From: Volutella citrinella
Lineage: Eukaryota; Ascomycota; Sordariomycetes; Hypocreales; Nectriaceae
Direction: 5' to 3'
DNA length: 64,000 bases
NCBI GenBank assembly: GCA_034401135.1
Contig: JAWZSP010000001.1
Coordinates: 1,984,001 to 2,048,000, forward strand
Part shown: positions 40,843 to 41,346 of the stretch, piece by piece
Layout of the letters: the number at the start of each line of letters is the position of its first letter
Numbering within the stretch: the first letter of the stretch is position 1
Notes under the pieces: generated by a model
Told to the model about the DNA's origin: nothing
What the model saw: the letters and a program-made list of their open reading frames with translations, nothing else
The model's database searches: none
Translations under genes and position numbers: made by a program

Positions 40843-41204
40843 GTTGGTGGGGTGGTGGGGAACGCTGCAGGCGTTGACGGGATTGGGAATGGGCTGTTTC
40901 ACTGCCTGCAGAGCCTCGATAGACGAAGCAATAATGTTACATTAGCAGCATGCTGAATTCTGTGAAAGTCGTCTGCGGTACCCCGTCCCAAGGACCTGGC
41001 CGTCTGGATAGTAGAGTGAAGTGCCCAAAACACATACTGCATAGATCTCCCGGCGGTGATGAGGCCGGGTCAGCCCCAGAGCACTGTGAGATGTCATCGA
41101 AACGATAGAAACGTGTCTCTTACATCTCATTTCTTTCGTTTCATTATAGACAACGACGTGTATAGTCATAGCCTGTCCTAAGGAGCTGCCCAACGCCCCA
41201 ACCC
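40843..41204. other. VPS34 3' flank and tRNA upstream region
   Basis: 362 bp with no gene. Pol III genes need little upstream sequence; no TATA-like element is obvious immediately before the tRNA. Confidence 0.4.
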
Positions 41205-41335
41205 GGATTGATAGCTCAGCGGTAGAGGTATGAGATGACTCGGAACCCTTGAACCATGTGAGACATCCGATCTAACAAATCGTCAGCGAGAGATTGCAGA
41301 TCTCTAGGTCGCGTGTTCGATCCACGCTCGGTCCT
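41205..41335 (+). tRNA. tRNA-Cys (anticodon GCA), interrupted by a 59-nt insert
   Basis: With 41228-41286 removed, the two parts (41205-41227 and 41287-41335) form a perfect 72-nt cloverleaf. The acceptor stem GGATTGA pairs with TCGGTCC (two G-U pairs), and the discriminator base is U, as expected for tRNA-Cys. The D stem GCTC/GAGC is completed only by the first base after the insert. The anticodon stem AGAGA/TCTCT carries the loop TTGCAGA (GCA at 41296-41298), and the T arm is GCGTG-TTCGATC-CACGC. The internal promoter elements survive: A box TAGCTCAGCGG (41212-41222) and B box GTTCGATCC (41315-41323). A T9 run follows. CCA is not encoded, as normal for nuclear genes. With the insert kept, the D stem loses one pair and the anticodon arm moves 59 nt away. 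Confidence 0.9.
41228..41286 (+). other. Intron-like insert with spliceosomal signals inside the tRNA
   Basis: The 59-nt insert lies between tRNA positions 24 and 25, not at the canonical 37/38 site of nuclear tRNA introns. It begins GTATGA, contains CTAAC at 41272-41276 and ends TCAG, with the branch-like A about 11 nt from the end; these match the introns of protein genes in this window. A hairpin with one mismatch is possible within it (41234-41241 with 41260-41267). Whether it is spliced, and by which machinery, cannot be told from sequence. Confidence 0.7.
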
Positions 41336-41337
41336 GA

Positions 41338-41346
41338 TTTTTTTTT
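41338..41346 (+). terminator. Pol III terminator (T9)
   Basis: Nine consecutive T residues start three bases after the tRNA discriminator base, a strong RNA polymerase III terminator. Confidence 0.85.

What the first reader, a model, noticed from the sequence alone, without database searches (positions are those of the whole stretch)
41205..41335. tRNA-Cys gene interrupted in the D arm by a spliceosomal-type intron
Removing 59 nt (41228-41286) gives a flawless 72-nt tRNA-Cys(GCA) with U73, intact A and B boxes and a T9 terminator. The insert starts GTATGA, carries CTAAC 10-14 nt before its CAG end, and sits between positions 24 and 25. Nuclear tRNA introns are normally at 37/38 and are cut by the tRNA splicing endonuclease, not the spliceosome. 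The exact restoration of the GCTC/GAGC D stem by a GT-AG excision is hard to ascribe to chance. I know of no fungal nuclear tRNA with such an arrangement. If this copy is functional, either a Pol III transcript is handled by the spliceosome, the endonuclease accepts an ectopic site, or a Pol II transcript covers the gene.
Basis: partly seen in the sequence, partly recalled or inferred. Interest (0 to 1): 0.93.

Follow-up and report, generated by a model that had tools for sequence, protein, structure and literature searches.

The report
tRNA genes with spliceosomal-type D-arm introns
In a fungus of the Nectria/Fusarium group, genes for two kinds of transfer RNA are interrupted by what looks like an ordinary messenger-RNA intron in the D arm, a place where nuclear tRNA introns are not expected, which suggests that the mRNA splicing machine also finishes some tRNAs.

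Summary
Window 41205-41335 is a tRNA-Cys(GCA) gene with a 59-nt GT-AG insert (41228-41286) in the D stem; its removal restores every tRNA pair. It is not alone: the same genome has a second, diverged tRNA-Cys(GCA) with a 58-nt insert at the same nucleotide, and a tRNA-Thr(CGT) with a 51-nt insert there too. The three inserts have a fungal donor (GTATG/GTGAGT), a CTAAC followed by 9-10 nt ending in YAG, and no T4 run. Between the two Cys copies the exons differ at 2 of 72 sites and the insert at 14 of 57, so the exons stayed under selection with the insert present. No shared bulge-helix-bulge fits the junctions. Two intact tRNA-Cys genes exist; no close intact tRNA-Thr(CGT) was found. A canonical-looking U6 gene of the same genome carries two GT-AG inserts, a precedent for mRNA-type introns in a Pol III transcript. 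Best reading: functional Pol III tRNA genes whose D-arm introns the spliceosome removes (0.72). No RNA evidence was available. In the papers I could search, spliceosomal introns are described for fungal U6 and U3, and tRNA introns outside 37/38 for archaea, a red alga and algal nucleomorphs.

The parts
41205..41335 (+). tRNA-Cys(GCA) gene, 72-nt mature length, interrupted
41205..41227 (+). exon 1: acceptor 5' strand, D stem 5' strand, D loop, D stem nt 22-24
   Evidence: 21 of 23 identical to the C2 copy
41228..41286 (+). 59-nt D-arm intron between tRNA positions 24 and 25; no TTTT inside
41228..41233 (+). donor-like site GTATGA
   Evidence: GTATG kept in the C2 copy
41272..41276 (+). branch-site-like CTAAC (within ATCTAACAA, identical in the C2 copy and in the Thr gene), followed by 10 nt to the 3' end of the intron
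41284..41286 (+). acceptor-like CAG
41287..41335 (+). exon 2: D stem nt 25 to U73, 49 of 49 identical to the C2 copy
41212..41222 (+). A box TAGCTCAGCGG, whole in exon 1
   Evidence: sequence; box consensus recalled
41296..41298 (+). anticodon GCA
41315..41323 (+). B box GTTCGATCC, whole in exon 2
   Evidence: sequence; box consensus recalled
41338..41346 (+). T9, Pol III terminator
   Evidence: sequence

Best explanation
This is a working nuclear tRNA-Cys gene. RNA polymerase III transcribes it from its own A and B boxes to the T9 stop, and the 59-nt D-arm insert is a normal fungal spliceosomal intron that the spliceosome removes from the pre-tRNA, much as it does for U6 snRNA in fission yeast. 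Ligation of nt 24 to nt 25 rebuilds the D stem. A diverged second tRNA-Cys gene and the tRNA-Thr(CGT) gene of this genome work the same way. Shown here: the anatomy, the recurrence in three genes of two isoacceptors, the constraint on the exons, and the likeness to splice signals of actin and U6 inserts of the same genome. Inferred: transcription, removal, and the agent of removal.
For: Same insertion nucleotide in three genes, each giving a tRNA by a GT-AG cut. Exons of the two Cys copies differ at 2 of 72 sites (U4-G69 to C4-G69, pairing kept; one D-loop site), the intron at 14 of 57 ungapped sites plus 3 gap columns, Fisher p = 2.4e-4; 120-nt flanks differ at 32 of 100 and 31 of 104 ungapped sites with many gaps. 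A dead copy would have lost its exons as fast as its insert. The intron's GTATG, ATCTAACAA and TCAG are kept in 18 of 18 columns against 25 of 42 for the rest (p = 0.001; segments chosen after looking; with 14 columns taken by the usual consensus, 13 of 14 against 30 of 46, p = 0.05). Actin introns of this genome: donors GTGAGT and GTAAGT (third donor not determined), branch CTGAT, CTGAC, CTAAC followed by 11-13 nt, YAG ends. Published fungal consensus: donor GTRWGT, branch RCTRAY, branch-to-acceptor 6-36 nt (PMC5832005, section read). The canonical-looking U6 gene (C4, L070) carries two GT-AG inserts either side of ACAGAGAAGAT, the first holding a B-box-like GGTTCGAAAACC. Fission yeast U6 precursor splicing is impaired in pre-mRNA splicing mutants (title of a reference in PMC5832005). 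No T4 in any of the three tRNA introns.
Against: No RNA data. Two intact tRNA-Cys genes could carry the load. The branch motif is TCTAAC in all three tRNA introns, where fungi prefer RCTRAY; the core fits, the first base does not. The donor's sixth base is T only in Thr. The Thr copy has one unpaired acceptor position (U5-C68). A search for the full signal set over lengths 45-89 did not exceed its reversed control in the window (23 against 32), so the signals alone are weak evidence; it is their exact place that counts. An uncapped 23-nt first exon is short for a spliceosome.
Confidence: 0.72

Rival explanations
1. The tRNA splicing endonuclease (Sen complex) accepts a D-arm site and Trl1 joins the halves, as proposed for ectopic tRNA introns of the red alga Cyanidioschyzon.
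For: tRNA introns outside 37/38 with bulge-helix-bulge junctions exist in Crenarchaeota and C. merolae, and short ones of unknown mechanism in an algal nucleomorph (PMC4090602, PMC3978253, passages read). In the window copy a 4-bp central helix is possible in register -2.
Against: No register gives a bulge-helix-bulge in all three genes: central-helix pairs (of 4) in registers 0, -1, -2 are 2, 2, 4 (Cys window), 2, 3, 2 (Cys C2) and 3, 0, 3 (Thr), with at most 1 of 3 outer and 2 of 3 inner pairs. Thr does not allow register -2. The two Cys pre-tRNAs fold no better than shuffles and not alike (Thr not folded). The yeast-type enzyme is reported to contact the D arm to place its cuts (PMC4090602, PMC3978253, passages), and the insert splits that arm. 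GT, CTAAC and AG would be chance.
Confidence: 0.1
2. Dead copies: DNA was inserted into a tRNA-Cys gene, which was then duplicated; the GT-AG fit is chance.
For: Two intact tRNA-Cys genes exist.
Against: Exons conserved and insert diverged between the two Cys copies; an A29-U41 pair, against G-C in the intact genes, is kept in both; the same site is used in tRNA-Thr(CGT); T-run stops are in place.
Confidence: 0.08
3. A Pol II transcript covers these genes and is spliced co-transcriptionally; the tRNA, or an unknown tRNA-shaped RNA, is cut out afterwards.
For: Would explain the use of the spliceosome without new rules; not excluded by any search.
Against: A box, B box and a T-run stop just behind the gene are present at all three genes (T9, T5 after U73, T6) while the flanks diverge; no T4 in the introns. 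U6 suggests that Pol III origin need not exclude splicing.
Confidence: 0.07
4. The insert stays in and the RNA works as a tRNA with an enlarged D arm, or not as a tRNA at all.
For: None found.
Against: The predicted folds of the two unspliced Cys RNAs do not form the normal D stem, and the inserts differ in sequence, length and fold.
Confidence: 0.03

Closest known systems
Spliceosomal introns of fungal U6 snRNA (S. pombe and others; Tani and Ohshima 1989, Canzler et al. 2016: seen only as references in PMC5832005)
   Same: Short GT-AG introns in a small structured RNA made by Pol III (Pol III recalled); GT-AG inserts in a U6 gene of this very genome.
   Different: The host here is tRNA; A and B boxes lie in exons.
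Spliceosomal introns of fungal U3 snoRNA (PMC5832005)
   Same: Donor GTRWG(T), CTRAY branch core, YAG; recurrent insertion at few positions; paralogues with and without intron, also in Fusarium and Nectria (section read).
   Different: snoRNA, not tRNA.
Ectopic tRNA introns of Cyanidioschyzon, algal nucleomorphs and Crenarchaeota
   Same: tRNA intron outside position 37/38, the D arm or D loop included in Crenarchaeota and C. merolae.
   Different: Described there with bulge-helix-bulge junctions, or 3-24 nt long in a nucleomorph (passages); here no shared bulge-helix-bulge but mRNA splice signals.
Canonical eukaryotic tRNA introns (37/38, Sen endonuclease)
   Same: Pol III tRNA genes; several in this genome, for example Thr(AGT), Lys(TTT) and Arg(TCG) as called by ARAGORN.
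   Different: Position, length and signals.

Membership tests
Spliceosomal (U2-type) intron | GT...AG borders with a fungal donor and YAG acceptor | tested here: met
   Three of three tRNA inserts; GTRWG in all three, the donor's sixth base is A, G and T
Spliceosomal (U2-type) intron | Branch site RCTRAY 6-36 nt from the acceptor | tested here: inconclusive
   CTAAC followed by 9-10 nt in 3 of 3, but preceded by T, not R
Spliceosomal (U2-type) intron | Removal by the spliceosome (lariat, dependence on splicing factors) | not testable with these tools
   No RNA data held
Sen-type / BHB tRNA intron | Bulge-helix-bulge at both junctions | tested here: not met
   No register satisfies all three genes; folds of the two Cys precursors not alike. 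Relaxed forms of the motif were not tested.
Canonical eukaryotic tRNA intron | Position 37/38 | tested here: not met
   Position 24/25 in 3 of 3
Functional tRNA gene | Cloverleaf after joining, identity bases, A/B boxes, terminator | tested here: met
   Both Cys: all pairs, GCA, U73; Thr: CGT, A73, one acceptor mismatch
Functional tRNA gene | Exons under purifying selection while the intron drifts | tested here: met
   2 of 72 against 14 of 57 differences between the two Cys copies; not testable for Thr, a single copy
Functional tRNA gene | Expression as charged mature tRNA | not testable with these tools
   No RNA data held

The most novel reading that the evidence does not exclude
The spliceosome is a regular tRNA-maturing enzyme in this fungal lineage: Pol III precursors of two tRNA-Cys genes and of the only tRNA-Thr(CGT) gene carry mRNA-type D-arm introns, so normal decoding of ACG depends on spliceosomal splicing of a tRNA.
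Probability: 0.5. Interest if true: 0.95.

Novelty: new variant of a known kind. Interest (0 to 1): 0.86.

Why it matters
Nuclear tRNA introns are taught as the business of the tRNA splicing endonuclease. Spliceosomal tRNA introns would break that division, show that an uncapped pre-tRNA with a roughly 23-nt first exon can enter the spliceosome, and tie translation to mRNA splicing. They would also mean that tRNA finders miss genes: ARAGORN without its intron option and Rfam's cut-off both miss the window gene, and ARAGORN with it names the wrong amino acid. Intron-bearing and intact tRNA-Cys genes in one genome make gain, loss and function directly testable.

Tried and rejected
Considered and rejected: chance arrangement; assembly error (three loci on two contigs); an intron family copied widely (the window query matched only the four tRNA-Cys loci); a large segmental duplication (about 180 bp of the C2 neighbourhood matches the window); an Ire1-type cut site (the junctions do not fit the consensus as I recall it).

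Led nowhere: an excision control with ARAGORN was too lax to tell anything (337 of 765 excisions called as some tRNA); exact-pattern scans of viral and prokaryote contigs gave 0 matches, as expected for a fungus; folds of the introns; the window-wide count of intron-like patterns was below its reversed control (23 against 32).

Survey limits: the Rfam tRNA search scored 63 of 1061 candidates. The first D-arm motif search gave 89 hits against 303 for its reversed control; 30 hits were cut out as loci and read, 59 were not read. Three stricter whole-genome motif searches gave 6, 2 and 1 matches (controls 11, 4 and 9); 3 of those 9 are the tRNAs reported, 2 were fetched and show no tRNA, 4 I dropped by eye because the D stem cannot pair. 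A B-box scan had 240 hits against 239 for its control, 100 listed; 75 sites in the fetched part were classed by script as 38 tRNA, 13 T stem only and 24 neither; 35 of the 38 (my count) have a full T stem and a 5' partner at an ordinary distance. A script for D-arm GT-AG splits found none in those loci, but it could judge only the 12 3' halves with an unbroken anticodon arm. Introns at other tRNA positions, or with other donors, were not searched for.

Full report
What is there. The window lies in a 45.1-Mb, 26-contig genome. The best of the 120 listed relatives of its ETR1-like protein is from Ilyonectria destructans at 90% identity, with Fusarium and other Hypocreales next among the named ones, so a fungus of the Nectriaceae is likely (inference). 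In the interval between a VPS34-like and an ETR1-like gene (names from the finding; ETR1 agrees, VPS34 was not tested), 41205-41335 reads as a tRNA-Cys(GCA) split by 59 nt in the D stem. With 41228-41286 taken out, ARAGORN calls tRNA-Cys(GCA) with every stem paired; with it in, nothing is found without the intron option, and a wrong tRNA with it. Rfam's tRNA model reaches 18.9 bits, below its 29-bit cut-off. Of 71 possible 59-nt excisions three restore all pairs; they are three registers of one product, one of them GT...AG.

It is a class, not a single case. A DNA search of the genome finds a second tRNA-Cys(GCA) at C2:2603326-2603455 with a 58-nt insert at the same nucleotide, and two intact tRNA-Cys genes in tandem on C1. 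Reading loci from a D-arm-plus-donor motif search turned up a tRNA-Thr(CGT), C2:3333500-3333622 minus strand, with a 51-nt GT-AG insert after the same nucleotide, donor GTGAGT, branch string ATCTAACAA, acceptor TAG, and T6 three bases behind the gene. Joined, it folds as tRNA-Thr(CGT) with one acceptor mismatch. Neither the gene with its flanks nor the joined 72-mer matches anything but its own locus, so no close intact copy was found; a distant one is not excluded. Stricter motif searches of the whole genome gave 9 matches in all, these 3 tRNAs among them and no further member (four of the nine dropped by eye).

Evidence that the genes are alive. Between the two Cys copies exon 1 differs at 2 of 23 sites and exon 2 at 0 of 49, the intron at 14 of 57 with 3 gap columns, and the 120-nt flanks at 32 of 100 and 31 of 104 ungapped sites with 40 and 32 gap columns (Fisher p = 2.4e-4 for exons against intron). 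One exon change turns U4-G69 into C4-G69, which keeps the pair. Both copies have A29-U41 where the intact genes have G29-C41, a compensated pair, so the exons were not simply overwritten by conversion from the intact genes. A local match of the two loci begins 39 nt upstream of the gene, and a weaker likeness goes on downstream, so the two are old duplicates. Each gene has its A box in exon 1, its B box in exon 2 and a T-run behind it (T9; T5 after U73; T6), and no intron holds TTTT. For Thr, a single copy, no divergence test is possible.

Evidence on the agent. The inserts have the parts of a fungal spliceosomal intron. Actin introns of this genome, which I delimited by the conserved protein, have donors GTGAGT and GTAAGT, branches CTGAT, CTGAC and CTAAC followed by 11-13 nt, and CAG/TAG ends (the donor of the third was not determined). 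The published fungal pattern is GTRWGT, RCTRAY, YAG and 6-36 nt (PMC5832005, section read). The tRNA introns fit except for T before CTAAC in all three and the last donor base in the two Cys genes. The longer string ATCTAACAA shared by Cys and Thr may point to a common source; beyond the ends, Thr and Cys introns are not clearly alike. In a sample of nearly two million stretches of these lengths the signal set was met by 6 sequences other than the tRNA introns, though over all lengths 45-89 in the window it is no commoner than in reversed sequence. A strict bulge-helix-bulge, which an endonuclease of archaeal type would use, is absent in any shared register, and the predicted folds are unremarkable.

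A precedent in the same genome. The U6 search gives two U6-like genes without inserts but with unusual bases (L068, L069) and a third hit at C4:4224003, below the cut-off (L070), that proves to be a canonical-looking U6 with two GT-AG inserts of 50 and 56 nt on either side of ACAGAGAAGAT; the first holds GGTTCGAAAACC, a B-box-like string. [quoted passage not shown] It lists Fusarium and Nectria species whose U3 paralogues differ in having an intron, the same mixed state as tRNA-Cys here.

Literature. Ten searches of the held open-access library showed no report of a spliceosomal intron in a tRNA gene; I saw listings with the starts of abstracts, and passages of PMC4090602, PMC8450103, PMC13149111, PMC5832005, PMC6053246 and PMC3978253, of which one section of PMC5832005 was read. 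Two reviews describe tRNA introns outside 37/38 in Crenarchaeota, Cyanidioschyzon and algal nucleomorphs, tied to bulge-helix-bulge motifs or of unknown mechanism. tRNAscan-SE 2.0 is described as looking for noncanonical introns with its archaeal model (passages), so fungal cases may be missed. Subscription papers and preprints were not searchable; the U6 intron paper itself was not held.

Verdict. The anatomy and the constraint make functional tRNA genes likely (about 0.85); given that, the spliceosome is the best agent (about 0.85), for 0.72 in all. What is missing is RNA.

Noticed in passing
L070:1353-1560 (G000:C4:4223855-4224062): Canonical-looking U6 snRNA gene with two GT-AG inserts flanking the ACAGAGA box; the first contains a B-box-like GGTTCGAAAACC, the second a T5 run that could act as a weak Pol III stop.
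   Followed up: partly
L068 (G000:C2:4256403-4256508), L069 (G000:C3:5044332-5044432): Two U6-like genes without inserts and with GCATTTCCCC in place of GCATGGCCCC; pseudogenes or divergent U6 copies.
   Followed up: no
G000:C10:189-335, C16, C26: Mitochondrial-looking tRNAs occur on C16 (75,286 bases, the same tRNAs 37,643 bases apart), on C26 (37,643 bases) and at the very start of the 778-kb contig C10: C16 looks like a doubled mitochondrial contig, and C10 may carry a mitochondrial stretch or a misjoin.
   Followed up: no
L097, L105, L114, L143: tRNA-Gly(GCC)-like genes: in six seen here, four have an anticodon-arm insert of 7-8 nt and two have none, a very short intron of canonical kind.
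   Followed up: no
window 41105-41204; L055 and L014 upstream: TATA-like strings roughly 30-45 nt upstream of several of these Pol III genes, for example ATATAAAG before tRNA-Thr(CGT) and TTATAAGG before an intact tRNA-Cys.
   Followed up: no
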